From Rhodohalobacter barkolensis (GTDB lineage Bacteria > Bacteroidota > Rhodothermia > Balneolales > Balneolaceae), in assembly GCF_002834295.1 (NCBI RefSeq), contig NZ_PISP01000001.1, forward strand, positions 1,116,001 to 1,180,000: a DNA stretch of 64,000 nt. The letters run 5' to 3'. The translations under genes and the position numbers were made by a program. This document shows positions 6,278-20,249 of the stretch, one piece after another. Below the pieces are notes generated by a model. That model did no database searches, had not been told where the DNA came from, and saw only the letters and a program-made list of their open reading frames with translations. The number at the start of each line of letters is the position of its first letter. The first letter of the stretch is position 1.

Positions 6278-6286
6278 TTTCGATGT

Positions 6287-6313
6287 AAGGGGGCTTTTCC
6301 TTAAAAGTCCCTT
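6287..6313 (+). terminator. Probable terminator after sppA
   Basis: An imperfect stem pairs AAGGGGGCTTTT with AAAAGTCCCTT across a 4-base loop and is followed by ATTTTC. It lies about 10 bases after the sppA stop. The T-tract is short, hence moderate confidence. Confidence 0.5.
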
Positions 6314-6431
6314 ATTTTCAATAATTCTTAATCAAAAAGTATTAACGCTTTTGCCGTGGCCTAGCTATAGCAACTCAAAGCGTATCGTTAAAAATTTCAG
6401 AGCGTAAGGCTGCAGCAGACTATCGATTATC

Positions 6432-7277
6432 ATGAAAACAGACAAATTCACTATAGAACAACTGAGTGAAGGATTTTTTGAATTGTTTGAAGACGGAACA
6501 TTTAAAAAAATGAATCCCAAACGGCTTTCAAACCCGATGGATGATCCAACTCTTGGCAGATATTCATCAGCCCTGGGTATTGATCCCCTATTGATTACAA
6601 ATGGAGATCAAAATATTGTTGTAGATCCCGGCTTGGGTTGGGGACTGGATCACAAAAGTCGCTATGATAATACTTCCAATATTATAACCAATCTGAATGT
6701 TTTTGGCTTGCGACCACAAGACATTCATCATGTTATTTTAACTCATCTTCACTTTGATCACGCTGCGGGTTCCACGTTTGTAAATGATCAGTTTAAAACT
6801 GAAGCGACTTTTCCGAATGCCATGTATTACGTGCACAAAGAAGAGTGGGAATACGCCTTAACACAGATTGAAAAAAACCACGACCTCATTGGTGCTGATT
6901 ACCGCATGGATGAACTCTACAAACTGGTGGCCGAAAATCGCCTGCATTTTATTGAAGAAGATGAATTCACTGTTGTGCAGGGAGTAAAATTAATTAAGAC
7001 GGGCGGACACACACCCGGGCACATGATCGTTAAAATCACTGATGAAGAGAAAGTGGCTTACTTTATGGGAGACCTGGTGCCAACCGAATTTCATCTGAAT
7101 CAGCCATCTCATCCACAAACGGTATTAGACACGGCGAAGGCTCATCAGGCTAAAAAGCTTATCCTGCGAAAAGCATACCAGGAAAAAGCGATCATGTACT
7201 TCTATCACTCGCTGTATAAAAAGACAGGACAGCTAGCTATTGATGAAAAGCGAAGGTATGTGTTGAAGGATGAGTAG
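6432..7277 (+). CDS. Metallo-beta-lactamase-fold hydrolase
   Basis: The 281-aa product carries the zinc-binding signature THLHFDHAAG (HxHxDH), a later metal-ligand segment GGHTPGHM, and an MGDLVP aspartate motif, in the order expected for the metallo-beta-lactamase fold. There is no signal peptide, so it is probably cytoplasmic. The C-terminal Tyr/His-containing segment (MYFYHSLY) is compatible with quorum-quenching lactonase or general esterase-like members, but the substrate cannot be read from sequence. It is converged on by the lipoprotein gene at 7657, with the non-coding repeat between them. Confidence 0.85.
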   Translation: MKTDKFTIEQLSEGFFELFEDGTFKKMNPKRLSNPMDDPTLGRYSSALGIDPLLITNGDQNIVVDPGLGWGLDHKSRYDNTSNIITNLNVFGLRPQDIHHVILTHLHFDHAAGSTFVNDQFKTEATFPNAMYYVHKEEWEYALTQIEKNHDLIGADYRMDELYKLVAENRLHFIEEDEFTVVQGVKLIKTGGHTPGHMIVKITDEEKVAYFMGDLVPTEFHLNQPSHPQTVLDTAKAHQAKKLILRKAYQEKAIMYFYHSLYKKTGQLAIDEKRRYVLKDE

Positions 7278-7327
7278 AAAACTATAAACCCGAAATTGCC
7301 AGCGTCAAACAGACCTGACAACGTTCG

Positions 7328-7505
7328 CTCGACTGTCGAGTGGAACTACCACAAAACCTAAGCCTGCCACAGAATACTCGACGGTTGAATACCGAAGTGA
7401 GTTAAGTTCCAATGCGAGAAGTGTGAGCAAGACGGAATAATTTGTCAGACGGCTAAAGGTTTTTATTTTCATAGCCAATCTTTCACAGAGCCGCCGGACG
7501 AGGGG
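7328..7505. repeat. Composite repeat, unit 1, copy A
   Basis: This is a 178-base non-coding unit. It starts with a perfect 13-base palindrome, CTCGAC-T-GTCGAG (7328-7340), followed 49 bases centre-to-centre by a degenerate second palindrome (7376 onward). It ends with a hairpin whose arms (7441-7454 and 7489-7502) enclose a 34-base loop. Copy C at 18426-18603 has the same length and differs at about 28 positions plus two compensating single-base indels by hand alignment. A short open frame across it is not conserved between copies and is not considered a gene. Confidence 0.85.
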
Positions 7506-7574
7506 CATACCTCAAAGGTTGAATTGATGGGGCTTGGTACCCGTTTCAGATATTCCCGGTTGTGGAATTGGAAT

Positions 7575-7656
7575 CCAATTCAGAGTATACTCGACAGACG
7601 ACTTGCGCAATTCAGACACTGGGAAGTTGATTATCAGCCTTAGTCGTCAGTCGAGG
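7575..7656. repeat. Composite repeat, unit 2, left copy
   Basis: The second unit of the composite repeat begins around the ATTCAGAG motif. It contains two long complementary arms (7590-7603 and 7642-7655, 13 of 14 positions pairing) around a 38-base loop. The copy at 18340-18417 keeps both arms and the exact loop length. It ends directly at the stop codon of the lipoprotein gene (7657). Confidence 0.8.
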
Positions 7657-8388
7657 TTAATCCAACCTGTAATGAATAAACACCCTATCAGTATCAATCA
7701 CATTGATTTGAGCTTCATTCTCCAACTGCATATCAATTTCAAGCTGGTCTGGCTGCGCGGGATCTTCGCTATCGGACAGGGTGAGTACACCTTCCATTTG
7801 CGTATCGGTGATTTGCCATGACAGTGTAAGCACGTCACCATTGCCGGATTGATAAACCAGCTCCCAGCTCACTTCTCGCAGAAGGTTGGAATTAAAGAGA
7901 GCATAATAATCTTCACCGTCAGCCAAAAAGCGTGCATCAAGTGATCCTAAGGGTGGCGGCGGCGGCGCATAGATAAAGTCTTCGTCCTTACTCTGACCTA
8001 TCTCCAGATTGATCTCATCATCCAAATCCGCAACGGTTAAGTCGACAGAATAAACGGACCTTAGATCCGCAAAATTAGCGGTAACAATTGTATTTGACGA
8101 AATCTTAAACTCCAGTGGATTATCCGTTGATTCTCGGTCACCTGTCCAGTTTACAAAATCCCAACCCTCGTTTGCTGTAGCAGTTACCGATACATTACGG
8201 CCATCTTCATAACTGCCTGATGATGGATTGACTGTTCCTCCCTCGGACGGGGATGCGGAAGCCGTTAAAGAGTAAGATGCAGTGTCACTGTCGTTACCAC
8301 TTTCATCACCATTACTGTCGGTTGTGCTACATCCATAGACCAACAGCAAGATGAGTACTGAAGTACATATATATATGGTTTTCTTCAT
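7657..8388 (-). CDS. Lipoprotein with an InlB-type B-repeat domain
   Basis: The 243-aa product has a signal peptide and a lipobox at Cys20 (LVYGC), then a Ser/Asp/Asn-rich linker. Next comes a domain (about residues 40-108) with the pattern PSEGGTVNPSSG ... GWDFVNWTGD ... TANF, typical of the bacterial InlB B-repeat/divergent beta-grasp domain of surface proteins. The remaining 130 residues match nothing I recognise; they include a PPPPP stretch. The gene begins 5 bases after the stop of the large metalloprotease gene, so the two should be one transcript. A surface or envelope partner of the protease is plausible but inferred. Confidence 0.75.
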   Translation of the reverse strand: MKKTIYICTSVLILLLVYGCSTTDSNGDESGNDSDTASYSLTASASPSEGGTVNPSSGSYEDGRNVSVTATANEGWDFVNWTGDRESTDNPLEFKISSNTIVTANFADLRSVYSVDLTVADLDDEINLEIGQSKDEDFIYAPPPPPLGSLDARFLADGEDYYALFNSNLLREVSWELVYQSGNGDVLTLSWQITDTQMEGVLTLSDSEDPAQPDQLEIDMQLENEAQINVIDTDRVFIHYRLD

Positions 8389-8393
8389 AATCT

Positions 8394-11300
8394 TTATTTG
8401 ATCAGTGTGAGTTTCTGAATATCCACAAAGCTTCCAGCCTGAATACGCAGGAAATAGACCCCGGATGCAAGGCTCGACCCATCGAACTGTACATTATAGA
8501 TACCTGGCTGCTGTGTTTGATTCACTAACGTAGCCACACGCCTTCCTAACAAATCATAAACAACCATTGAAACCTCTGCTTGATTTGCAATTTGATATCT
8601 AATGTTTGTGGTTGGATTAAATGGATTTGGGAAGTTCTGATCAATGTTCGTTTCTAAAATCATCTCATCAAGAGATACCCGTTCCAAAATCAAAGATGAA
8701 TATTCTTTAGATATTGAATGTTTTTGCCCGGGCAACAGATTAATGTGGATTTCTTCGTTTTCATCAACTGCTATTATCCTATATGCAAACTCATCAACCA
8801 CAGAATCCTCTGATAAATTAACACTCACCGGATAATTATTTGAGGTCAAGTAAATTTCAGCAGGTAAATTATCAAGGATCGAATAATTTTTATCAGACCT
8901 AATATCTAAAACTGTTACTGGTGGTTTAGGTGGAAGCAAGTAACGATATTTAATTTGATTGTCTAATGGATTATTTGATATGTGAAAAGCCAATTCTACA
9001 TCACCAACTCCAAATAAAATCTTATCTGATTTTATATCACTTTGTACTTTTTGAGCTATCTGTGTTTCTTCACCATTTTCAGTGATTAAATCAACATCCA
9101 AAAATATGTATCCTGAATCATTAGCATGTACCCAATATCCGTAAGAAGGGATCATGAAATCTACTTCTTCATAAACACCATCTTGGTATGTCATTATTGG
9201 AGCATTCGAAAGGACATTCGATGAATCGACTATTGAGCTAACTTCAACTGTATCCACAAGACTACCGATCAAATTCCATCCCTCATTTAGTTTAATAACT
9301 GTATTTTTCAATCCAACACCTTTGGTATTTAGGCTCTCACCTGTTGCACTTCGAATCCAGTACCCTTTTCCTTGCACTATAGTTGAGTCGCTTGAATAGG
9401 TTCTATTAAAACTAAAGAGTTGTGAGCTTTGTAAGTCAATTGACTCATATTCAATCGGAAGGCTGATCATTTCCCAAGAGTTAGATATGTCATGAACTTG
9501 ATTATAATAACTGAGTATATCTGAAAACTCAGATTCACTATTGTTTAAATCTATGGCTTTTAAAGAATAAAAAATTGATCCTTGAGTCGGATCTGTATCT
9601 GTATATTCTGTGATTTCCGGACTTACCTCATCATAAAGCTCCAAATTGTTTATTGAAGAACCTCTGTATATATGTATGTCAGTCAAACCTACAGTTTTGC
9701 TTATGTCCCAGGAAATAGAAACTGACTCATCATTTATACTCATTGCAAGACTATCTGGGATAGGAATAGATTCTGTCATAAAACTTGAAATCATACTCCA
9801 CTGATCTTCACTAAGATCGTCATCTACTTGAACTCTCCAATAATAAGTTTGCCCATAGTCCAAAGGTTCTTCAATTTGATAAGACTCATTGGTCAAGGCT
9901 GTGACATCAACTAAAGTTGAATTAAATGTTGCTTCATCCGAAAGTTGTAAATGATAAACTTCGTCCTGAGATTTTCCTTCCCATATCAACTCCGGAAAAA
10001 TGTTTACATCTGTACCATCATCAACCGGAGAAATTAAAACTGGTAAATTAACATTGCCCACAATAACCATAAATGTAATTGTTGAATTGCCAACGCCATT
10101 TTTCGCAGTTACATCTATTTCAGAAACACCGACTGAACTTGTAACCAGGGATAGTTGATTACCATCAATTGATACGCTTGCAACATTTTCATTAGATGAA
10201 CTAACTTCAAAAGTTAAATCACCTTCAGACGGGTCAAAAAATATTTCTTGCAAATCCGCATAAAATGTATCACCGTTTGGATCTAATTCCTGGTTAGGAA
10301 TAGTCCCTTGAACTCCTGGTCTTGTTGACACAGTGGTAGTAGGTGATGGAGCTGTGATTTCTAACTTGACTGATGTTTCAGCATAAGCACCATCCATGTC
10401 GGTTGCTTTTAACGTAACATTATGGATACCTCTTGAAAGGGTAGATCCTACCAGTTGCAATACAGAACCGTTCCCCAGAAATCCATCCACATCAGATCTC
10501 CATTCCAAACTCGATCCTTCCAGCTGACCATCCTCCAGATCGCTGGCACTTCCGCGTAATGTAATTACGGCAGATGTGTCAATTTGAGCATCTGTTGAAG
10601 GGGAAAGAATAAAAGCGTCCGGTGTAGAGTTTGGAACTGAAAATATACCGGTTGTATCTTCAGCGGTATTAAATCCATCACTGACCTGAATTCGAAACCT
10701 TCCCTCACTTGATTTCTCCAGGTTGCTCGTATTTACTGAATAACTCGACTGACGGATATCAGTAATAACAGTCTTCCAGCTTTCCCCAGCATTATCGCTA
10801 TAGTAAAGTGAATAGGATAAATCACCACCATCCGAATCAGTACCATTCCAAATCACTTCCAGGCTATCCCCTGAAATGCTTTCTCCACCAACTGGATATT
10901 CCAGTTGAACGGTTGGGGTGTTTGCCGAAGCAACAACACTACCCAATGGTGTTTCATTATACAGTACCTGAATCGATGCTATTTCGGCATCGTAAGGAAC
11001 AGCAATCGAAAATGAGCCTACCTCCATGGAGCCGTCAGACCCAAACGTGGGTTCAAACGATGTTTCATAGAGCACTTCACCGTCACCTCCAACTGCACGG
11101 AGCAGAAAATCACCCGGATCGGGAGTCAGGTGGTCTATCGTGCTTGGATTAACAATACTTTGTATGGGCGAAAAATCTACGCTGTTTTCCGGGGTTTCCT
11201 GTGCAAAATCAATGCTTCCACTCACAACCAAATAGCGCCCTATTAATGTAGAATTCAGCTCAGTAAAATTTTCGCTTCCTGCAAAGGCGAGCAGATTAGA

Positions 11301-13391
11301 AGCAGTTGAGCCATATCTATCTTTGATATGCTCCCATATACTTTCATATGTGAAACTTGAAATCCAGCGGTCATCAAAAGAATCTTCATTGGAATAATTA
11401 TCATTAGTACAGTAACTCATCAGTTCTGCATTCCACCCACCTTTTTTATCACCCCAAATACCATTTTCTTTTTTCACATTGCCAAGATGACTTACAGTGG
11501 CAATTCTTCTATTGTTGGTATTTATGCCCCAAGATTCATTAAAAACATTTTCTACAGGGCCTAAAGTTGCTACTTCCGGATGATTTTCTTCAGGCCGATG
11601 AAAAAATGGAAAGTCTTGTGCCCATGGTGCTGCTTTTTCAGCACATGGACCTTTTTTTTGAATTCCCTCTATCCATCCATCGGAGGGCATATCGCCGAAT
11701 TTACTGTGAACTGCGTGACGTTGACCAAATGCATGACCAAGTTCATGCATTGTGGTAGAAATAGTGAAATTATCAAGATTCGTATATGCTGTAAAACCAG
11801 GGATATCATTAGCTTCACCTTTGTAGTTATCTTTACCAGAATTTATAAACCCATAGTAAATGTGATCTTTGTTTATAGTGCCTTCAAGTACATCATGTAA
11901 CCACATGTAGTTTAGTTTTTTCAAGATATCTTTTGAAGAAACACTATCCCCCACAACGTCACTAAATTCCATAGTTATTCTGCCACGATAAGTGCCCTTA
12001 ACCCCGCTAATTGGAAACATTGAAATTACTTTTTTAATAGTCTCAAAAAGATCAGAGTTAGTAAAATCTGCCTTAATGATATCACCATCACTATTTTTCC
12101 AGTCTATCAGAAAAAAAGTGATTTCTGGCACACCGCTTTCCTGAAATTCAAGGATGTTCGTCATACACCCTCCATCACTGGTACTAATTAATTGAGCTTG
12201 GTCCGGGCAGCTGATATCCCCACCATTTATTTTCAGCTTGATTTTTCCGTTTAGCCAGGATTGTGGTAAATCGAAGTTTATACTTTTATCGTACGTTGCC
12301 CGTCTTTGTGCAAATGCGAACGGATCTTCTTCTGCTGAGATATACCCCGGTATATTGGAGTCTGATTCATATGGAGCTACCTGCGCAGGGCTTAATGGAT
12401 TATCAAATTCGTCGTACCCTTCCAGCCATACATTGGCTCTCACGCTATCCTGAGTAAGCGTTTGCATATGAGCTCTTACAATTGTTGGTTTGTCTTCAAT
12501 GAGCGGAACTGTATTATTCCAGTTTTGGATGGACTGGTTTACTTCTAAAGCAATTAATTCTATAGCAGGCTGTACGTGAAATTGCATATTATCGATAAAG
12601 ACAGTAGAATCGTAAACCCTGTCAGCCACATCAAAAATTGAAAAAATTAATGAAATTGTTTCCTGCCCTGGAGAGATAGGTATATATGTATCCAGATCTG
12701 TTGTTGCACCTCCATTTTGCTTCCTGCCATATGCAGTACCAGCAGCAAATCCTTCCTTTTGTCCTAATGTACCAGTATCATTAATTGTTATAGGATTTCC
12801 CTCTTTATCGAAAACCACGTTATCGGGCGCAACTAAATTTCCACTCCCATCAACTGTAAAAGTTGACTCTCCAACTTCCACGATAAACCCATCGTTAAAA
12901 GAACTTCCTATAAAATTGGGATATTCTTCAGAGAAAAACTTAAAATCAAACGACAAGAAATTCGCACCATCCGGCACATTGAGCTCAAGCTTCAGTCTTA
13001 CTATATCGGTTGCACTACCGGGACCTGTAGGCCCATTTTCTAATTCGCACGAAATCACGTTAGCATCTATATCAACATCTAATGCCAAATCAGCACAACC
13101 AGAACTCAAAACTAAATAGCTATTTCCCTTAATTGGAAATCCTGAGGCAGCTTGGCTGAATATTGAGTAACCAAGTTGGTCACTACCTAAAAAATCAATT
13201 GAAATTACGTCTTCCTCATTTAATCCAAGAGCTTCTATAACATCTGTATTTGCAATGTTTACTGATGAATTTGCATTAATTTTATTTACAGATTCTGATT
13301 CGTTGATAACTTTAGTAACTCTTTCCTGACCAAAAAGTACTTGGTGTTGAATCGATAGTATAAAAAAAACAGCCAATATAAATCGCAGCAT
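8394..13391 (-). CDS. T9SS-secreted metzincin-type zinc metalloprotease, multidomain, 1665 aa
   Basis: A signal peptide (about 1-21) precedes a domain of the choice-of-anchor L type (about 45-270). The protease region follows, with a full metzincin zinc motif HELGHAFGQRH (His549, Glu550, His553, Gly556, His559) and a likely Met-turn in ELMSYC about 110 residues later. After it come Ig/fibronectin-like and cadherin-like segments (roughly 790-1330), then a low-complexity beta-rich region. A T9SS type A sorting domain (NFPNPFNPTTNIRY to the C-terminal Lys) forms the last 80 residues. The protein should be exported by Sec, then secreted or surface-anchored by T9SS. The substrate is unknown. A lipoprotein follows in the same transcript. 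Confidence 0.9.
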   Translation of the reverse strand: MLRFILAVFFILSIQHQVLFGQERVTKVINESESVNKINANSSVNIANTDVIEALGLNEEDVISIDFLGSDQLGYSIFSQAASGFPIKGNSYLVLSSGCADLALDVDIDANVISCELENGPTGPGSATDIVRLKLELNVPDGANFLSFDFKFFSEEYPNFIGSSFNDGFIVEVGESTFTVDGSGNLVAPDNVVFDKEGNPITINDTGTLGQKEGFAAGTAYGRKQNGGATTDLDTYIPISPGQETISLIFSIFDVADRVYDSTVFIDNMQFHVQPAIELIALEVNQSIQNWNNTVPLIEDKPTIVRAHMQTLTQDSVRANVWLEGYDEFDNPLSPAQVAPYESDSNIPGYISAEEDPFAFAQRRATYDKSINFDLPQSWLNGKIKLKINGGDISCPDQAQLISTSDGGCMTNILEFQESGVPEITFFLIDWKNSDGDIIKADFTNSDLFETIKKVISMFPISGVKGTYRGRITMEFSDVVGDSVSSKDILKKLNYMWLHDVLEGTINKDHIYYGFINSGKDNYKGEANDIPGFTAYTNLDNFTISTTMHELGHAFGQRHAVHSKFGDMPSDGWIEGIQKKGPCAEKAAPWAQDFPFFHRPEENHPEVATLGPVENVFNESWGINTNNRRIATVSHLGNVKKENGIWGDKKGGWNAELMSYCTNDNYSNEDSFDDRWISSFTYESIWEHIKDRYGSTASNLLAFAGSENFTELNSTLIGRYLVVSGSIDFAQETPENSVDFSPIQSIVNPSTIDHLTPDPGDFLLRAVGGDGEVLYETSFEPTFGSDGSMEVGSFSIAVPYDAEIASIQVLYNETPLGSVVASANTPTVQLEYPVGGESISGDSLEVIWNGTDSDGGDLSYSLYYSDNAGESWKTVITDIRQSSYSVNTSNLEKSSEGRFRIQVSDGFNTAEDTTGIFSVPNSTPDAFILSPSTDAQIDTSAVITLRGSASDLEDGQLEGSSLEWRSDVDGFLGNGSVLQLVGSTLSRGIHNVTLKATDMDGAYAETSVKLEITAPSPTTTVSTRPGVQGTIPNQELDPNGDTFYADLQEIFFDPSEGDLTFEVSSSNENVASVSIDGNQLSLVTSSVGVSEIDVTAKNGVGNSTITFMVIVGNVNLPVLISPVDDGTDVNIFPELIWEGKSQDEVYHLQLSDEATFNSTLVDVTALTNESYQIEEPLDYGQTYYWRVQVDDDLSEDQWSMISSFMTESIPIPDSLAMSINDESVSISWDISKTVGLTDIHIYRGSSINNLELYDEVSPEITEYTDTDPTQGSIFYSLKAIDLNNSESEFSDILSYYNQVHDISNSWEMISLPIEYESIDLQSSQLFSFNRTYSSDSTIVQGKGYWIRSATGESLNTKGVGLKNTVIKLNEGWNLIGSLVDTVEVSSIVDSSNVLSNAPIMTYQDGVYEEVDFMIPSYGYWVHANDSGYIFLDVDLITENGEETQIAQKVQSDIKSDKILFGVGDVELAFHISNNPLDNQIKYRYLLPPKPPVTVLDIRSDKNYSILDNLPAEIYLTSNNYPVSVNLSEDSVVDEFAYRIIAVDENEEIHINLLPGQKHSISKEYSSLILERVSLDEMILETNIDQNFPNPFNPTTNIRYQIANQAEVSMVVYDLLGRRVATLVNQTQQPGIYNVQFDGSSLASGVYFLRIQAGSFVDIQKLTLIK

Positions 13392-13755
13392 TATTCAAGT
13401 ATTTATTTTTGTTCAAAAATATTCTGTAACTGAAAATGTCTCATTGATTGTTATCTATATTCATCACAGTTTTTGTAGTCTGCTGAAATTTTAATCATGG
13501 ATAAATTATAAAATGCTGATTTATAATTACTTAAGTTTCAAAGTGAATACAATATTATCAGTACTCTCAATCCGCCATAAGAAAAGATTACAAAGCATCG
13601 ACCCCTCTAATATCCAAGTAGAACAAATCTTAAGAAATAGCCCAAAATGTAGAGTAGTTCAGGTATAATCACGAGAAGAAAGTAAATCTCCTTAGTTCTC
13701 AGTTTATTGAAGATTTATAGGAATCAAATTACTTTTTTAAACCCTATATAAATGA
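13392..13755. other. 364-base intergenic region upstream of the metalloprotease gene
   Basis: This AT-rich stretch separates the Lon-like gene (stop at 13756) from the metalloprotease gene (start at 13391), both on the minus strand. I see no ORF or repeat. On the minus strand the octamer TATTTTTG (13414-13421) fits the Bacteroidota -7 consensus TAnnTTTG and would give a leader of about 18 bases, but no clear -33 TTTG is correctly spaced. A separate promoter for the protease-lipoprotein pair is therefore possible but weakly supported. Confidence 0.35.
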
Positions 13756-16098
13756 TTAGTAAGTACCAGAAAACTCTTCAAAACTCACAAACTCATCTCC
13801 TTTCCAATACAACAACCTATCCTGATAGTTTTCAAAATATCTGTAGTCCGGGTTTTGATCGATGATACCTTTTGAATAAAGGTAGTCTGCTGTTAAATCG
13901 TAGCCATCAGATGTGCCGACTCCCCGAAGTGAAAGGTCATCATTGAAGTAATAATATACATTTGACCTGCTCGCCGGTAATTCCACAGTATCTCTTTTGT
14001 ACTGTTCATAATCCGTGACGTAAACTTCTAACACACCGGATTCAGGAAAGTATCTGAGACGTTCAGCAATATTGTACTTTCTATCGGACAGTACCGACTG
14101 ACCCACAATTGTTTTGGGAATTAAGATATACTCAATAGATTCATTTAAAGAGTAATCCAATAAGTTATATTCATCGTTTAAAGGAGAGTGACCGGTAATG
14201 TTGTCTATATCCAATAAGGCGACAAAAGCCATATCAAAAGCATTATTTACACCGGAAAATGCAATCTTCTTGCTTCCACCACCTGGGTCTAAGATGATTG
14301 CATCGTGAATTCTCCCAGTATTCACAAAATGGCTTAACTCTATTCCGGTTTTCGGATCTCTAACAGAAAGGAGTCCCGGAAAATAGGGAGCATGATTTAC
14401 TACTGCGATAAGTTTTGATTCTTCACTCTCCACAATCTGTCCCACAGATAGTAGTTTTTTGGGTAAATAAATACCATTGATAATTTCCGGCTTATTTGGA
14501 AATTGAAGATCGTAACTTAGAGTTTTTACCCAGTCTGGATCTTGACGGTTAACTTGTTTTTTCTTTAGTAATCCACCTGATATAGAAAGGTTCTGACTAG
14601 CACCGGTTTCTCCCCAAATGATCGAATAATTATTCTGACTTTTCCAAAATGTTACCAGAGAATGATCCGTCGTTATATTCTTTTGTTCAGTTGCAACTGT
14701 ATGCGCCCCCACCTCAATTCTGTCAATGATCACCCCCGACTCGTTTTTCACTTTCAAAAGGGTTCCTTCGAATTCTCCACTTACCGGTCTTTGATCTAAT
14801 GGACCGTATATCAATCGGAATATGATCAGAACCAGGATGACGATTACAGAGATTCCCACCCCTTCATATCGTCTTTGCCAAGCTTGTTTTACAATATGTG
14901 TAATCTTGGATGGATTTATATGTTGGGTCAAACGACGATCATAGAGAAGTTCATTCAAATTCTTTACTGATATGACTATCAAATCTCTATTGGGATATTT
15001 TCTTTTCAGCTTATCTATCGCCTCGATGAACTGAAAATATTGCGATGCAGGAACGACCATAAAATTAATCATGGAGAAAAATGCCGCCCTTACTTTAGCA
15101 TCAACCCCTTCACTATCCACCGGTAAAAGATTACCGGCTGAATCAACATTACCTGTAATGCATAGGTCAGGCTGCAGTTCATACCTTTCGCGTTGGTTGC
15201 TTTTTCTCTGTAGGCCGACAAACCAAAGAAGCGCTATAGCTGCATTTGCCGATTCACCGTCATGAAATGCAATATTGGTTTGATATTGGGCATGCCCGTT
15301 ATAGTATTTACCATCCGATACTTTCTTATTATTTGAAATTAAACTTCTGGCAGCCTCAGATATCTTTCTGCTTTCGGGCCACTCCGCCTGCTCAATACCG
15401 ATTACCGGATAGCGTCGAAATATTTTATCGTAACCTTCACTGGAAGATCTAACTATCTGTACGTTAAGGTTTCTAAGCCGCCCGTATTCGATCATTCCAA
15501 ATTCTGAATGTTTATATATCTCAACAGTTGGCACAAAAATAGAATCGGCCTCACTTTTTAACAGTTGATCTAACTCACCAATTAGTGATTTAACGATACT
15601 GTTATCTTTGTTATTTATATCGGCTACACGTCCCTTTAACAGTTTGGATATATTAAGGAGATATTCAGAGTCTGTCCTAAATTCAATTTTTACAATTAGT
15701 GGTTCTTTAATCTTATACCAGTTAAAAAGGAGTTGAGAAAGCTTCTCCATCTCCTCGACACATATATATTGGATCAGACAAACAACTTTCAACCTTTCAA
15801 CTGCTTTTCGGAAATTTTCAGACTTCCAAATATCTTCAAACTTATCTGCAAGCTCCAAGAAAATCTCAATATCACTTTCAAGAATTGCCGGGTCCAAACC
15901 GCAATACGTAACGAAAGATGAATAAACAGGAAGTTTTTCGGCAAGCTGAATGAGGTAACTTTCGTACCGATTGTAATCCCCCTCTATCTGCTGAATGAAA
16001 TAACGAATCAGAGTATATCGATGACGTATGGATTGGTGAGAGTCCAATTCACGAGTAAGTTTTCTGTATAACTTTTCAACGTGAATAGGATTATTCAT
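13756..16098 (-). CDS. Membrane-anchored Lon-like (S16) Ser-Lys protease with extracytoplasmic sensor-like domain
   Basis: The 780-aa product has no AAA+ motifs, but residues about 240-352 follow the Lon proteolytic domain. They show an ESRKISEAA helix, the nucleophile region HDGESANAA with Ser283, CITGNVDSAGNLLPV, and the lysine region EGVDAKVRAA with Lys335, ending in VVPASQ. The Ser-Lys distance (52) exceeds the usual 43 because of a charged insertion near 298-308. A single membrane span (about 413-431) follows the basic stretch KQAWQRR, predicting a cytoplasmic N-terminus. Residues 433-780 would be extracytoplasmic and contain propeller-like repeats (PYFPGLLSVRDPKTG, FSGVNNAFD). The first 235 residues are helical and unrecognised. 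The gene starts 11 bases after the anti-sigma-like gene. A regulatory protease is my inference. Confidence 0.7.
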   Translation of the reverse strand: MNNPIHVEKLYRKLTRELDSHQSIRHRYTLIRYFIQQIEGDYNRYESYLIQLAEKLPVYSSFVTYCGLDPAILESDIEIFLELADKFEDIWKSENFRKAVERLKVVCLIQYICVEEMEKLSQLLFNWYKIKEPLIVKIEFRTDSEYLLNISKLLKGRVADINNKDNSIVKSLIGELDQLLKSEADSIFVPTVEIYKHSEFGMIEYGRLRNLNVQIVRSSSEGYDKIFRRYPVIGIEQAEWPESRKISEAARSLISNNKKVSDGKYYNGHAQYQTNIAFHDGESANAAIALLWFVGLQRKSNQRERYELQPDLCITGNVDSAGNLLPVDSEGVDAKVRAAFFSMINFMVVPASQYFQFIEAIDKLKRKYPNRDLIVISVKNLNELLYDRRLTQHINPSKITHIVKQAWQRRYEGVGISVIVILVLIIFRLIYGPLDQRPVSGEFEGTLLKVKNESGVIIDRIEVGAHTVATEQKNITTDHSLVTFWKSQNNYSIIWGETGASQNLSISGGLLKKKQVNRQDPDWVKTLSYDLQFPNKPEIINGIYLPKKLLSVGQIVESEESKLIAVVNHAPYFPGLLSVRDPKTGIELSHFVNTGRIHDAIILDPGGGSKKIAFSGVNNAFDMAFVALLDIDNITGHSPLNDEYNLLDYSLNESIEYILIPKTIVGQSVLSDRKYNIAERLRYFPESGVLEVYVTDYEQYKRDTVELPASRSNVYYYFNDDLSLRGVGTSDGYDLTADYLYSKGIIDQNPDYRYFENYQDRLLYWKGDEFVSFEEFSGTY

Positions 16099-16109
16099 AC
16101 AAACATTAC

Positions 16110-16934
16110 TTAGTTGTAGAAGAAGAGCCTCACTCCTTCTGTTTCCAGGAGTTCCTGTTCTACAGTTGCCACACCATCTGTCATTTTGAAAAGCATCGAC
16201 TGATTTTCTCTATAAAGTACAAGAAAGTTGGTTTCCGGATCATTGTGATTTAAAATTGGAGTTAACTGAACAGTATTCTCTTTTTTCTCTATTTCTATCG
16301 GAATCATGTCTTCTGTAAATGCTGACCTTCCTGCCAGGTAACTCTTTTTACTGAGTTGCGTGTTTTGCGAAACAGTGCAGACCGGTATGTGCACGTTGAA
16401 TGAATCCCACTCTTTTACATTTTCCGGATCTAATTCATTTACACTTACCGATACCTTGCCACCAGGTTCGCTGACGAAAAATAAGTTACTCGCCGGTATC
16501 TGAAAGAGTAACACATCGTCTTTTTGGATCTGGTTTGAAAGCAGATGGATCTTAATCTCATCTCTGCTTTTAAAATACAATGCTCTTAAAAGCGTGTTAT
16601 GTTCATCTGAAGCAAATGTTTTTAAAGTTTCAATTACGTGCTCTTTACTACTCTGACTCTGGGCTGCAAGTATAAAAATACCCCGATATGATTCTGAATC
16701 TTCTATCATCGGTTTCATTGAGATAATGGAAACCGCTGCATCCCTCTTTTCTTCCTTGCTCAGCTCTTCATAAATAGCGTAATAATTTTTAAACCATTCA
16801 AAATATAGTGATGCTTCAGAATCCCTTTCTATTTGTCTGCGTACTTCCCTTCTCCTCTCTTTCGATAATTCGTCAGGAAACTGAACATAAGTCTCAATTT
16901 GTTTTTCAGTAAGGTTCATACGATAAAATTTCAA
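16110..16934 (-). CDS. Putative anti-sigma-like cytoplasmic protein
   Basis: The 274-aa product is not recognised with certainty. Its first 60 residues (LTEKQIETYVQFPDELSKE, then RRQIERDSEASLYFEWF) resemble the N-terminal helical domain of anti-sigma factors, with the usual layout of a short acidic helix, a Leu/Ser turn and a second helix ending in an aromatic cluster. No zinc-binding His/Cys set and no membrane segment are present, so it would be soluble. The rest is beta-rich and contains a PASNLFFVSEPGG segment of unknown function. It lies between the sigma-like gene (52 bases upstream) and the Lon-like gene (11 bases downstream). Met6 is an alternative start. The role is inferred from weak similarity and position. 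Confidence 0.4.
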   Translation of the reverse strand: MKFYRMNLTEKQIETYVQFPDELSKERRREVRRQIERDSEASLYFEWFKNYYAIYEELSKEEKRDAAVSIISMKPMIEDSESYRGIFILAAQSQSSKEHVIETLKTFASDEHNTLLRALYFKSRDEIKIHLLSNQIQKDDVLLFQIPASNLFFVSEPGGKVSVSVNELDPENVKEWDSFNVHIPVCTVSQNTQLSKKSYLAGRSAFTEDMIPIEIEKKENTVQLTPILNHNDPETNFLVLYRENQSMLFKMTDGVATVEQELLETEGVRLFFYN

Positions 16935-16986
16935 CTAGAAAGAATGTTTGGAATAAAGTCATCGCAAGTTACATGTTTTGCATAAA

Positions 16987-18000
16987 TCAGACCCAATCAT
17001 TCCTCACATTTTGAATTAGATCTGTTCTGATCAATTTAACCATATATTCCAGTACAGGCCTGTGTTTTTTCCTAAACTGTTCATATTCCAAATCAGCCAG
17101 ATAGGTTTTAATGCGGTCAAATTGAGATAAGCCTGACTGTTCAGTAAGGTCATCACGAACGATATCAGTGGCTGTATCAAAGTAGATATCCACATGATCA
17201 GTCTCAATTTTTCCTCTCTTTACATATCCCGGTGCAACATCTCTCTTAATTTTATCAACAGATCTGTTCAAGAATTTTTCAATATCCTGTTTCAAAAGTT
17301 GTTTGTCTGCAGCCGGTTTCAAATTTTTTCTTTCTGACTCATCATGAATCAGAACAAAACTCTCACGAATTATTTTTGCCAGAATAACCAGTGAAAAGCG
17401 ATTTCGATACACCGACTGATCTTGCAGAATATTTACAACCTGATTCAAAATATCCGGTATCTGCATCTGTTCTTCAAGACGGAAACAGAGCTTTATCCGC
17501 ATAAAATCTTCCGGCATTGAAGGTAGCTCTTGAACTTCATCATTCGGTACGACTATGAAACCGTCTTCATATCGTACTTTATGCCTGAAATCTGAATTAC
17601 GAACGGAAAGTTTAAGATTCCGAATGATTTTTTTCAGAGAAGGATCACGCTCACCGTAATAGCGAAAAATACCGTCATCAACTTTGGTGAAAACCAGTTT
17701 TCGTAATTCGATAAACAATTCATGATCCTTAAATCCATCAATATCCACTGAATCAAAATAGCTTTGCAGCAATGTGAAATTTCCAAAATCATCTTTCTGA
17801 AAAATCTCAGCTATAAAGTCCCATGCAAGATCTGATTTACAATCTTCTTTAAGAAAATAGGATTTATGAGATTTAGACTTCATGATCACATATGACAATG
17901 CTAACTTATGACAAGTTGTGATCAAATAATGAATATCCCGTCTGTTATAAGATGTGTTGATACACTTTTTTAACGTACCCCTTAGTTCATAGTCACCCAT
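16987..18000 (-). CDS. Putative sigma-factor-like protein (weak region 2 resemblance)
   Basis: The 337-aa product is first in the three-gene cluster. Residues about 24-115 (HYLITTCHKLALSYVI ... KSDLAWDFIAEIFQKDD ... ELFIELRKLV) recall the helices of sigma-70 region 2, especially the acidic-aromatic helix that in ECF factors reads like DLVQEVFLKLW. I do not find a convincing region 4 helix-turn-helix in the C-terminal half, which is rich in Lys, Arg and Asp (KKIIRNLKLSVRNSDFRHK, RSVDKIKRDV). It could equally be an unrelated helical regulator. There is no signal or membrane segment. Position next to an anti-sigma-like gene strengthens the guess slightly. Confidence 0.35.
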   Translation of the reverse strand: MGDYELRGTLKKCINTSYNRRDIHYLITTCHKLALSYVIMKSKSHKSYFLKEDCKSDLAWDFIAEIFQKDDFGNFTLLQSYFDSVDIDGFKDHELFIELRKLVFTKVDDGIFRYYGERDPSLKKIIRNLKLSVRNSDFRHKVRYEDGFIVVPNDEVQELPSMPEDFMRIKLCFRLEEQMQIPDILNQVVNILQDQSVYRNRFSLVILAKIIRESFVLIHDESERKNLKPAADKQLLKQDIEKFLNRSVDKIKRDVAPGYVKRGKIETDHVDIYFDTATDIVRDDLTEQSGLSQFDRIKTYLADLEYEQFRKKHRPVLEYMVKLIRTDLIQNVRNDWV

Positions 18001-18235
18001 AGATTTTCTTTTTTACCCCTGTAAACATTTCGAAGTAAAAAAAAATGAATCTATTTAACAATTTTTTACTACGCTTTTAAACAAACTTAAGAAAGGTCTA
18101 ATGATTAATTTAAGGTTGAACTAAATCAAAAGAGAAGCTATTCGATTGATAGATAACGTTTTAGACAAATATGTTATCCATATAGCTCACAGCCATTAGG
18201 AGAGAAGTAAAGTAAGTTCGATTTGATACACCACA
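18001..18235. other. AT-rich leader region upstream of the sigma-like gene
   Basis: The region between the sigma-like gene start (18000) and the first repeat copy is AT-rich, with several A-runs (a run of nine near 18036-18044). A GATAAC/GTTATC inverted repeat with a 15-base spacer lies at 18152-18178. It should hold the promoter of the minus-strand cluster, but no clear -7/-33 pair was found. Confidence 0.3.
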
Positions 18236-18302
18236 CTCGACTGTCGAGTGGAATTACCGCAAAACCTAAACCTGTCACAGAATACTCGACGGTCGAGTTA
18301 AG
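18236..18302. repeat. Composite repeat, unit 1, truncated copy B
   Basis: This is the first 65 or so bases of unit 1. It includes a 17-base palindrome centred on 18242 (CACTCGAC-T-GTCGAGTG, 18234-18250) and the second palindrome ACTCGAC-G-GTCGAGT (18284-18298), again 49 bases apart centre to centre. Over the first 53 bases it differs from copy A at only about four positions. The rest of unit 1 is missing. Confidence 0.8.
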
Positions 18303-18339
18303 AAAGTCTGTATACTTAGTTTAGGAAATGAGGGCCGGA

Positions 18340-18417
18340 TTCAGAGCAAACTCAACCGACGACTTGCACATTCTTGGTTTTGGAAAGTTATTCATCAGCA
18401 CTAGTCGTCAGTCGAGG
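18340..18417. repeat. Composite repeat, unit 2, right copy
   Basis: It carries the same complementary arms as the left copy (18351-18364 and 18403-18416, 12 of 14 positions pairing) with the same 38-base loop. It starts at the shared ATTCAGAG motif. It sits between copy B and copy C of unit 1, giving the order 1-2-1. Confidence 0.8.
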
Positions 18418-18425
18418 GATGATAC

Positions 18426-18603
18426 CTCGACGGTCGAGTGGTAGTACCACATAACCTAATCTTGTCACAAAATACTCGACGGTCGAGTACTGAAGTGTAG
18501 TAATATCCAATGCTAGAAGTGTGAGCTAGTCGGAGTAACTCGTCAGACGGCTGATGTTTTTACTTTCATAGCCAAGTCTTTCTCAGAGCCTTCGGACGAG
18601 GGG
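18426..18603. repeat. Composite repeat, unit 1, copy C (best preserved)
   Basis: This is a 178-base unit with a perfect 13-base palindrome (18426-18438) and, 49 bases on, the perfect 17-base palindrome TACTCGAC-G-GTCGAGTA (18473-18489). A terminal hairpin has arms at 18539-18552 and 18587-18600, 12 of 14 pairing, with a 34-base loop. All three structural elements match copy A in position. No ORF is shared between copies. Confidence 0.85.
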
Positions 18604-18689
18604 AAATGATCCAGACGCTGAAAGAAGTTCGCTGTGCTCACATGCTTTCAGGTCTTTTGATAAGGGTAAGAATATTGAAGCTTAATTAT

Positions 18690-18717
18690 CCGCCTGACCG
18701 CAGGAGCGGTCTGACGG
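18690..18717 (-). terminator. Hairpin downstream of rho
   Basis: A stem of 12 positions (10 paired) around an AGGA loop has the perfect inner core GACCGC/GCGGTC (18696-18701 with 18706-18711). It lies 15 bases past the rho stop. No U-tract follows on the minus strand, so it may be a dispersed hairpin or an RNA-stabilising element rather than a classic intrinsic terminator. Confidence 0.5.
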
Positions 18718-18731
18718 GATTTAGAGATTGG

Positions 18732-20249
18732 TTACTTATTCATCGAGATTAGAAAATCTTCGTTGGAGCGTGTCCCCTTCATCTTATCTAGCAGGAATTC
18801 CATCGCTTCAAATGCGTTGTGATTATTCAGGTAACGGCGAAGAAGCACAACTTTTTCGCGCTCTTGGTCCGGAACAATAAGCTCTTCCCTTCTAGTTCCA
18901 CTCTTGAAAATATCGATTGCCGGATAGATTCTTCGTTCCGCAAGGCGACGATCCAGAACCAGTTCCATATTACCGGTACCCTTAAATTCTTCAAAGATCA
19001 CATCATCCATACGCGATCCGGTATCAACCAGAGCTGTAGCGATGATCGTAAGGCTTCCACCGCCTTCAATATTCCGTGCTGAACTGAACAGCTGTCGTGG
19101 CGCTTTCAGTGCTTCAGAATCTACACCACCGGTCATGGTTCGTCCTGAATTGCCCGTTGCCACGTTGTAAGCACGTGCTAGACGGGTGATGGAGTCCATT
19201 AGCAGAAGCACGTCCTGACCGCTCTCTACAAGCCGCTTGGCCTTCTCAAATACGATTTCAGATAGCCCGACATGGTTTTCCGGTTTCTCATCAAATGTAG
19301 AAGCTACAACTTCAGCATTTTCAACAGAGCGTTCCATTTCTGTTACCTCTTCGGGACGCTCATCAACCAATAGAATGATAATCTTGGTATCCGGATGGTT
19401 TTGGTTTACTGCGTTGGCAATATTTCGAAGAATTGTTGTCTTACCGGTTTTGGGCTGAGCTACAATCAATCCTCGCTGCCCCTTACCAATCGGCGCGAAG
19501 AGATCCATAAGCCGGGTAGTATATTCTATCGGTTTGTACTCCAGCTTGAATCTCATGTCGGGATAGACCGGTAATAGATCTTCAAAATCTTCCCTGTTAT
19601 CCATGTCTGTTGGAATTTTTCCATTTACACCTTCAACCCGAAGAAGTGCAAAATAGCGCTCTCCCACTTTTGGAGGTCGAATAATTCCAATTACACAATC
19701 ACCCTGTTTTAGCCTGAACCGTTTAATTTGTGATGGTGAAACGTAAATGTCGTCCGGACTCGCCTTGTAATTATAGTTTACAGAGCGAAGAAATCCGTAA
19801 CCATCCGGTAAAATCTCAAGCGTACCTTCATTCAGCAGAAATTTACCGAGTTGCGGGGTAATTTCATCCAAACGTTCCTGAAGAGTTGGAGCATCAGATT
19901 CCGGAAGAACATTACTAACATGTTTCTTATTCGGCTTCTTATTGCTCTTATGACGCTTATTTGGCTGACCTCCCCTCTTTGATCTACCGGAATTGGAGTT
20001 TTGGTCGTACGTTTGAATATGCTCTTTATTACCGTAAGAAATATTCTGCAGCGGCTTCTCTTTCTGATCAGGACTTTTTCCGGATGCCTCAGCCTGCTGA
20101 CGAATGCGATCGATGATGGCCTGCTTTTTTAATGCAGTAACACCTTTCATTCCCAGAGATTTGGCAATTTCTTTAAGTTCCTTGACCGTTTTGGTATGTA
20201 ATTTATCCAGGTCGATATTTGTATCCTTATCGGTTTGAGTGTCCGACAT
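18732..20249 (-). CDS. rho: Transcription termination factor Rho
   Basis: Rho is the hexameric RNA-dependent ATPase that terminates transcription. The 505-aa product has an N-terminal Rho-N helical domain ([17 protein letters not shown], about 17-33) and a Lys/Asn-rich linker (about 70-115). The RNA-binding cold-shock-like domain (about 130-210) follows. The ATPase core shows Walker [14 protein letters not shown] (about 262-274) and Walker [17 protein letters not shown]. The basic linker makes it longer than the 419-aa E. coli protein, as is common in Bacteroidota. It is preceded on the same strand by folC, 101 bases away. Confidence 0.97.

What the first reader, a model, noticed from the sequence alone, without database searches (positions are those of the whole stretch)
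13756..18000. Three-gene cluster: sigma-like, anti-sigma-like and membrane Lon-like protease
Seen: three closely spaced minus-strand genes (gaps of 52 and 11 bases), with weak sigma region 2 resemblance in the first, weak anti-sigma N-domain resemblance in the second, and a Lon-type Ser-Lys domain tethered to a membrane span and an extracytoplasmic domain in the third. Known: most regulated-proteolysis systems cut a membrane-bound anti-sigma factor from the periplasm or within the membrane (DegS, RseP). Here the anti-sigma-like protein is soluble and the protease domain faces the cytoplasm. Inference: an outside signal sensed by the tethered domain could switch on cytoplasmic cleavage of the soluble regulator. 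I know of no described system with this layout.
Basis: partly seen in the sequence, partly recalled or inferred. Interest (0 to 1): 0.85.

Follow-up and report, generated by a model that had tools for sequence, protein, structure and literature searches.

The report
Transmembrane Lon-like protease with anti-sigma partner
Three neighbouring genes look like a relay in which a sensor outside the cell membrane switches on an inward-facing protease that cuts a regulator and so frees a gene-switching protein; the trio recurs in many related bacteria, but this is inferred from sequence and has not been tested at the bench.

Summary
In detail: three minus-strand genes (g1 337 aa, g2 269 aa, g3 780 aa) that recur together across the phylum. 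g3 is a Lon-type Ser-Lys domain (Ser283 and Lys335 in 25 of 25 aligned homologues; best solved relative E=8e-7), no Walker A, one membrane span, and an FG-GAP-like outer domain. g2 starts with an anti-sigma-like domain: at 14 of 40 fetched loci g1 is followed instead by one protein that joins this domain (zinc ligands invariant), a span and g3's outer domain, without Lon. g1 as sigma factor is the weakest link: no profile match, only middling structural similarity. g2's low-confidence linker carries a conserved LAA motif; Ala86 is kept in 33 of 34 split-form g2 proteins, and the exception is the genome where no g3 was found. Best reading: the outer domain gates cytoplasmic cleavage of soluble g2, freeing g1. 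Nearest described system: CRISPR CalpL/T/S, where a cyclic-nucleotide-activated Lon protease cuts a soluble anti-sigma factor. Here the sensor lies across the membrane: a new variant of a known kind.

The parts
16987..18000 (-). g1, 337 aa, sigma-like partner protein (new family; sigma identity inferred)
   Evidence: model pLDDT 77.6, pTM 0.49; structure comparison
17596..17994 (-). g1 N-terminal helical region (residues 3-135), proposed counterpart of sigma region 2
   Evidence: helices; VIA alignments start at model residue 1-5 in the sigma rows; no sequence-profile support
16993..17304 (-). g1 C-terminal helical region (residues 233-336), proposed counterpart of sigma region 4
   Evidence: inference
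16110..16919 (-). g2, 269 aa, soluble anti-sigma-like protein (ATG start at 16919)
   Evidence: no membrane span in its homologues
16740..16919 (-). g2 N-terminal three-helix anti-sigma-like domain (residues 1-60)
   Evidence: hhalign to the zinc-type N-domain of fused proteins: probability 96.6, E 6e-10, 63 columns; helices 5-13, 20-32, 34-54
16656..16676 (-). conserved linker motif FILAAQS (residues 82-88), proposed cleavage or recognition site
   Evidence: Ala86 in 33 of 34 split-form g2; model segment 75-92 below pLDDT 50
16113..16727 (-). g2 C-terminal beta-rich region (residues 65-269)
   Evidence: no clear fold match
13756..16098 (-). g3, 780 aa, membrane-tethered Lon-like protease
15544..16098 (-). 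g3 N-terminal region (residues 1-185), function unknown, no Walker A motif
14899..15543 (-). g3 Lon-like Ser-Lys protease domain (residues 186-400)
   Evidence: profile against solved sequences: 1z0c E 8.1e-7; Pfam Lon_C in 6 of 25 members
15250..15252 (-). codon of Ser283, proposed nucleophile
   Evidence: Ser in 25 of 25 rows
15094..15096 (-). codon of Lys335, proposed general base
   Evidence: Lys in 25 of 25 rows
14803..14862 (-). g3 membrane span (residues about 413-432)
13759..14799 (-). g3 outer domain (residues 434-780), FG-GAP-like propeller
   Evidence: FG-GAP_3 in 17 of 25 members; shared with the fused proteins, E 6e-42
8394..13391 (-). possible target or ligand gene: 1665-aa secreted protein with choice-of-anchor L domain and T9SS type A tail
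   Evidence: place only, no evidence of regulation

Best explanation
A one-component, outside-in proteolytic switch. g2 is a soluble anti-sigma-like protein that holds g1, a divergent sigma-like protein, inactive. g3 sits in the inner membrane with an FG-GAP-like sensor outside and an ATP-independent Lon-type Ser-Lys domain inside. A signal or ligand sensed by the outer domain turns on the Lon-like domain, perhaps by changing its oligomeric state; it cuts g2 at or near the LAA motif in the linker between the anti-sigma domain and the beta-rich part; g2 then lets go of g1 (directly or after further degradation), and g1 directs RNA polymerase to target promoters, perhaps including the neighbouring secreted-protein genes. 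Shown by sequence: cluster and its conservation, Lon-type domain and dyad, topology, homology of g2's N-domain and g3's outer domain to the two ends of one fused zinc anti-sigma-type protein, conserved linker motif. Inferred: protease activity, cleavage of g2, the signal, g1's function as a sigma factor, and the targets.
For: Lon-type domain: profile of 25 g3 proteins against solved sequences, 1z0c E 8.1e-7 (called LonB from recall; the record says protease La homolog), 8dvh Lon protease 2 E 5.3e-6; Ser283 and Lys335 in 25 of 25 rows, N-flank of the span more positive in 25 of 25, Walker A in 0 of 25. Anti-sigma: in 14 of 40 fetched loci g1 is followed by one protein = anti-sigma-type N-domain, span, g3's outer domain, no Lon; His3, His28, Cys32, Cys35 invariant in those 14; zf-HC2 in 10 of 14, best E 0.001; g2 of the window's kin aligns to that N-domain at E 6e-10 and g3's span plus outer domain to its rest at E 6e-42. 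Split loci: HX3CX2C still in 7 of 24. Coupling: g1 in 46 of 48 genomes with a strong g3-profile match, N=394, Fisher p 9e-52 (not corrected for kinship). Linker motif: Ala86 in 33 of 34 split-form g2, lost only in G012, which keeps g1 and g2 and the other top-ranked positions but has no g3 match; strict motif in 0 of 14 fused proteins. Tandem g3 copies next to a single g2: outer domain more divergent than Lon in 4 of 4 pairs tested. g1: of 50 VIA rows shown, 23 are chains of sigma or RNA-polymerase initiation entries that I take to be sigma (chain names are not printed), best Z 7.8. Precedent: CalpL/T/S (passages).
Against: g1 has no sigma match: Pfam 0 sigma families among 30 and 28 members, solved sequences none, hhalign to nine own-genome and kin ECF sigma factors probability 0.7-0.8 percent, and reversed-sequence decoys score higher; Z below 8 can be a common helical arrangement, as the tool says; Foldseek gave nothing at E<=0.001. 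The window's own g2 has lost the zinc ligands and has no Pfam anti-sigma match. The motif loss rests on one genome. The relaxed motif pattern was set after seeing the sequences. Two g3 proteins (G028 438 aa, G149/L082 499 aa) end just after the span and keep no outer domain, so the sensor is not always there. Two genomes with a strong g3-profile match (G230, G375) have no g1 match, and five with g1 have no strong g3-profile match. No activity, binding or expression data exist here.
Confidence: 0.55

Rival explanations
1. Same relay without sigma: g1 is another kind of cytoplasmic effector (for example a different RNA polymerase- or DNA-binding protein) held by g2 and freed by g3's proteolysis.
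For: No sequence profile links g1 to sigma factors; the structural similarity is middling.
Against: The g1 gene is followed at 14 of 40 fetched loci by a protein with the full zinc anti-sigma signature, a span and an outer domain, the usual partner of an ECF sigma factor; sigma or initiation-complex chains fill 23 of the 50 VIA rows shown.
Confidence: 0.25
2. The Lon-like domain is a scaffold or binding module, not a working protease: g3 recruits g2 through the LAA motif and releases g1 by a shape change, as the fused form must do without any Lon domain.
For: The fused form has no Lon domain, so the outer domain can control the anti-sigma domain without it, by RIP or by a shape change; there is no AAA+ module to unfold substrate.
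Against: Both dyad residues are kept in 25 of 25 rows at a median pairwise identity of about 30 percent in this domain, hard to explain without catalysis.
Confidence: 0.12
3. g3 degrades or processes something else (for example g1 or a secreted-protein precursor), and g2 is a regulator of g3 rather than its substrate.
For: Only genetic coupling ties g2 to g3; the downstream neighbour is a secreted T9SS-type protein in 5 of 9 loci tested.
Against: The protease faces the cytoplasm; the LAA motif of g2 is missing in the one genome without g3.
Confidence: 0.08

Closest known systems
[quoted passage not shown]
   Same: Three partners; [quoted passage not shown]
   Different: CalpL senses cyclic tetra-adenylate with a cytoplasmic SAVED domain in a CRISPR system; g3 has no SAVED match in 25 members, a membrane span and an outer FG-GAP-like domain, and the anti-sigma-like domain here is of the zinc type in relatives. 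CalpT's own fold was not compared.
Zinc-binding (ZAS, class I) membrane anti-sigma factors with an extracytoplasmic sensor
   Same: The fused relatives have this layout: His3-His28-x3-Cys-x2-Cys domain, span, outer domain, next to the sigma-like gene.
   Different: In the window the layout is split in two proteins and a Lon-like domain has taken the place of the anti-sigma domain at the membrane.
Regulated intramembrane proteolysis of anti-sigma factors (DegS/RseP type; recalled)
   Same: An envelope signal leads to proteolysis of an anti-sigma factor.
   Different: There the anti-sigma factor spans the membrane and is cut outside and within it; here g2 is soluble and the protease domain is cytoplasmic and part of the sensor protein.
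Csx29/Csx30/CASP-sigma (type III-E CRISPR)
   Same: A signal-gated endopeptidase cuts a soluble inhibitor of a sigma factor (passages of PMC10028731).
   Different: Protease is a TPR-CHAT (caspase-like) enzyme gated by RNA.
LonC, Lon-like protease without ATP-powered unfolding (PMC3391209, search listing only)
   Same: Lon-type proteolytic domain working without ATP-driven unfolding.
   Different: No membrane span plus outer domain is known to me for it; not compared directly here beyond the Lon rows.

Membership tests
Sigma-70 / ECF sigma factors (g1) | match to sigma region 2 or 4 sequence profiles | tested here: not met
   Pfam: no sigma family among 30 and 28 g1 members; NCBIfam SigW E 0.023 and ShbA E 0.051 in one member each of 30, not significant; hhalign no better than reversed decoys. 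In the own genome PF04542 finds 16 places, 15 over the cut-off, g1 not among them.
Sigma-70 / ECF sigma factors (g1) | two-domain sigma2-sigma4 fold | tested here: inconclusive
   AlphaFold model pLDDT 77.6, pTM 0.49; VIA best Z 7.8 to a SigD model, 7.3 SigB complex, 7.1 sigmaS complex, 163-166 residues aligned, rmsd 10-18; Foldseek none at E<=0.001.
Sigma-70 / ECF sigma factors (g1) | gene next to a zinc-type anti-sigma gene | tested here: met
   14 of 40 loci with HX3CX2C fused proteins, 7 of 24 split ones with the motif.
Sigma-70 / ECF sigma factors (g1) | binds core RNA polymerase and promoter DNA | not testable with these tools
   needs bench work
Class I / ZAS anti-sigma domain (g2) | homology to anti-sigma domains | tested here: met
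   hhalign of ten window-type g2 to the N-domain of 14 fused proteins E 6e-10; those show zf-HC2 in 10 of 14, best E 0.001, the one score seen below the curated cut-off, and RsiW at E 0.038 in register. Indirect, through the fused form.
Class I / ZAS anti-sigma domain (g2) | HX3CX2C zinc signature | tested here: not met
   absent in the window's g2; present in 14 of 14 fused and 7 of 24 split relatives. Passages of PMC7406223: about 44 percent of this class lack it, so it is not required.
Lon (S16) protease domain (g3) | Ser-Lys dyad and domain homology | tested here: met
Lon (S16) protease domain (g3) | AAA+ module (LonA/B/C proper) | tested here: not met
   no Walker A before the span in 25 of 25 rows, no AAA Pfam domain apart from one chance-level RuBisCO activase hit (E 0.15, one member)
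CalpL/T/S | SAVED sensor domain on the protease | tested here: not met
   no SAVED match in 25 g3 members at E<=1
CalpL/T/S | Lon protease beside anti-sigma-like and sigma-like genes | tested here: met
   (sigma-like by inference)
CalpL/T/S | type III CRISPR neighbourhood | not tested
   only the three proteins were scanned with PADLOC; the rest of the window was not scanned for cas genes
RIP-controlled membrane anti-sigma factor | anti-sigma factor spans the membrane | tested here: not met
   no span in the split-form g2 proteins; the fused relatives do have this layout (hydropathy called a span in 12 of 14)

The most novel reading that the evidence does not exclude
A transmembrane signalling class in which one protein is both the outside sensor and the inside protease, acting in a single ATP-independent cut on a soluble anti-sigma factor; it arose by a swap in which a Lon-like domain replaced the anti-sigma domain at the membrane end of an older zinc anti-sigma sensor (or the reverse), and it drives a family of sigma factors so divergent that no sequence profile recognises them. 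Tandem g3 copies would let several signals feed one switch.
Probability: 0.45. Interest if true: 0.86.

Novelty: new variant of a known kind. Interest (0 to 1): 0.73.

Why it matters
If true, it gives a third way to connect an envelope signal to a sigma factor, beside cutting a membrane anti-sigma factor from outside or in the membrane and beside shape change. The split and fused forms, both beside the same g1 family, offer a natural experiment on how a proteolytic switch evolves from a direct one. It may also help with a gap noted in PMC7406223 (passages): few ECF sigma factors of Bacteroidetes have a recognisable class I anti-sigma partner. The conserved linker motif and the dyad make it directly testable.

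Tried and rejected
Chance ORF cluster: rejected by conservation of order and of the dyad. Defence system: PADLOC gave only Cas8b at E 0.077 for g1, chance level. Direct sequence evidence for g1 as sigma: Pfam, NCBIfam, solved sequences (33), hhalign with reversed controls (59, 66, 69): nothing convincing. Fold of g2's C-part: Foldseek none at E<=0.001 (76), VIA best Z 6.1 (77), led nowhere; g2's N-domain was barely tested there. A g3 structure was not predicted; the two structure jobs went to g1 and g2. No complex of g1 and g2 could be modelled. Rfam over 5000-20000: nothing (98). Tree of 51 g1 proteins (95): fused and split cluster, three changes at least, one origin not ruled out, quick method with weak deep forks and long branches, so no direction of evolution is claimed; in it G012 (no g3) was labelled split. 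Other CRISPR or SAVED sequences were not fetched for comparison.

Rows dropped before counts: a 76-aa ORF in L111 with a weak g2 N-domain match and the 14 fused proteins were left out of the 34 split-form g2; that set is 10 kin of the window plus 24, with some genomes represented more than once (G110, for example). The 40 regions were picked by hand, and G110, G149, G298 and G071 give more than one locus. Neighbourhoods of g1 in G187 and G367 were not looked at. Paper searches returned nothing; others returned lists longer than shown, of which only the rows shown were seen; two papers that hold both FG-GAP and anti-sigma factor (PMC7841849, PMC2668756) were not opened.
Full report
What is there. 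Three minus-strand ORFs, here g1 (16987-18000, 337 aa), g2 (16110-16919, 269 aa from its ATG; 274 aa from an upstream TTG) and g3 (13756-16098, 780 aa), with gaps of 52 and 11 bases for the ORFs as first described. Pfam, NCBIfam and PADLOC give nothing significant for the three window proteins themselves; the best was the NCBIfam spore LonB model on g3 residues 262-384 at E 0.01.

Conservation. Among 58 related genomes 10 have a g3 match and 11 a g1 match. Fetched neighbourhoods show g1-g2-g3 in the same order in other genomes of the genus (some cut by contig ends), with two g3 copies in tandem in G005 and three in G016; G028 has a g3 of 438 aa that ends after the span; G012 has g1 and g2 but no g3; G043, from another family, has all three. 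In 92 genomes of the family 16 have g2, so the system is patchy. In a phylum sample, 51 of 394 genomes have g1 and 76 of 394 have a match to the g3 profile, of which many weak ones are ordinary Lon proteases or other FG-GAP proteins (my reading of their frame lengths and matched parts). With a stricter limit of E<1e-20, 46 of 48 g3-profile genomes also have g1, and five g1 genomes do not reach it.

g3. A profile of 25 g3 proteins finds Lon proteases among solved sequences: 1z0c at E 8.1e-7, 8dvh at 5.3e-6, LonA entries around 1e-3. Pfam Lon_C matches 6 of 25 members and FG-GAP_3 17 of 25. Ser283, Lys335, Gly281 and Thr315 are the same in 25 of 25 rows; there is no Walker A motif ahead of the span, and the flank before the span is the more positive in 25 of 25, which puts the Lon-like domain in the cytoplasm.

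g2 and the fused form. Of 40 regions around g1 elsewhere in the phylum, 19 hold g1, g2 and g3 (in L082 and L101 without a recognised outer domain, in L093 in another order), 14 hold g1 followed by one protein of 442-498 aa, and 7 hold something else: g1 alone, g1 with g2 only, or g1 with g3 only. The 14 fused proteins consist of an N-domain like that of g2, a span (called by hydropathy in 12 of 14) and the outer domain of g3. His3, His28, Cys32 and Cys35 are invariant in them, the pattern of zinc-binding anti-sigma factors; zf-HC2 matches 10 of 14 with best E 0.001, and the solved anti-sigma-W factor RsiW appears at E 0.038 in register, each weak alone. Ten g2 proteins of the window's kind align to this N-domain at E 6e-10, and twelve g3 proteins align by span and outer domain to the rest at E 6e-42. 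Thus g2 and g3 of the window correspond to the two ends of one anti-sigma-type sensor, with a Lon-like domain added at the membrane end. The zinc motif remains in 7 of 24 split relatives and in G043, and is gone in the window's g2.

The linker. The g2 model (pLDDT 81.7, pTM 0.72) has three helices (5-54) and beta strands from 65 on, and its only long stretch below pLDDT 50 is 75-92. In that stretch lies FILAAQS. In an alignment of 34 split-form g2, Ala86 is kept in 33; after Met1 and Trp171 it is the top-ranked position of 238 scored. The one exception is G012, the genome with no g3 match in two searches; its g2 keeps the common residue at the other leading positions listed (Trp171, Tyr47, Arg112, Gly154, Trp42). 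A strict pattern matches 25 of 34 split and 0 of 14 fused proteins; a relaxed one, set after seeing the sequences, 33 of 34 and 2 of 14, against 3.2 of 34 in shuffles. I read the motif as the site that the Lon-like domain cuts or grips. It is one loss event, so the link is suggestive.

g1. This is the least certain part. No sigma model of Pfam matches 30 or 28 members; NCBIfam gives SigW and ShbA once each in 30 at E 0.02-0.05, the latter at the right end of the protein; hhalign to ECF sigma factors is no better than to reversed decoys. The model (pLDDT 77.6, pTM 0.49) has no Foldseek match at E<=0.001. In the VIA second look the best row is a SigD model at Z 7.8, and 23 of the 50 rows shown are sigma or initiation-complex entries whose chain I take to be sigma, aligned over both ends of g1. 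No control tells how many sigma chains were among the 521 compared, and the tool warns that helical proteins reach such Z values without kinship. The partnership with a zinc anti-sigma-type protein is the stronger argument.

Mechanism. The best-supported account is a relay: outer domain, Lon-like domain, cut in g2's linker, release of g1. In CalpL/T/S a Lon protease activated by a cyclic nucleotide cuts the soluble anti-sigma factor CalpT, and further degradation is thought to free the sigma factor CalpS (passages of PMC11417357); in Csx29/Csx30 a caspase-like enzyme plays that part (passages of PMC10028731). [quoted passage not shown] In tandem g3 copies the outer domain is more divergent than the Lon domain in four of four pairs tested (61 against 50, 48 against 30, 47 against 31 and 57 against 35 percent identity), as expected if several sensors feed one g2.

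Targets. g3 is followed in the window by a 1665-aa secreted protein with a T9SS tail; a T9SS tail is found on the downstream neighbour in 5 of 9 loci tested, the window included. That is a lead only.

Verdict. Observation confirmed; interpretation partly supported; a new variant of a known kind, with the sigma identity of g1 and the cut in g2 as the two decisive tests.

Noticed in passing
window 18236-18248, 18285-18297, 18426-18438, 18475-18487 and 7328-7340; L174 6884-7127: Palindrome CTCGACNGTCGAG: five places in the window with up to one mismatch against 0.07 expected, nine places in the genome, four of them in an array beside a mutL-like gene (L174). It looks like an interspersed intergenic repeat.
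   Followed up: partly
window 7328-7505 and 18426-18603: Two copies of that repeat region, 83 percent identical over 179 bases and in the same orientation, flank a block of five minus-strand genes (7657-18000) that includes g1, g2 and g3; the block may have moved or been gained as a unit.
   Followed up: partly
window 7657-8388: 243-aa lipoprotein-like protein with repeats of the kind VTATANEGWDFVNWTG after the 1665-aa secreted protein; no NCBIfam match. A similar-looking 298-aa protein lies downstream of the trio in L075.
   Followed up: no
L019 9559-11046 and 12219-13691: In G043 g3 is followed by a PknB-like Ser/Thr kinase and, after one gene, a protein that looks like a PP2C phosphatase (by eye).
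   Followed up: no
L018 and L089: In G028 and G174 the cluster sits between a mutL-like gene and the same kind of glycosyltransferase-like gene, so the place may be an insertion site used more than once.
   Followed up: no
L101 (G229): Three g1 copies and two weakly matching Lon-like, outer-domain-less proteins in one region.
   Followed up: no
L016 4993-5998: In G005 g1 is split over two frames: a frameshift, real or of assembly.
   Followed up: no
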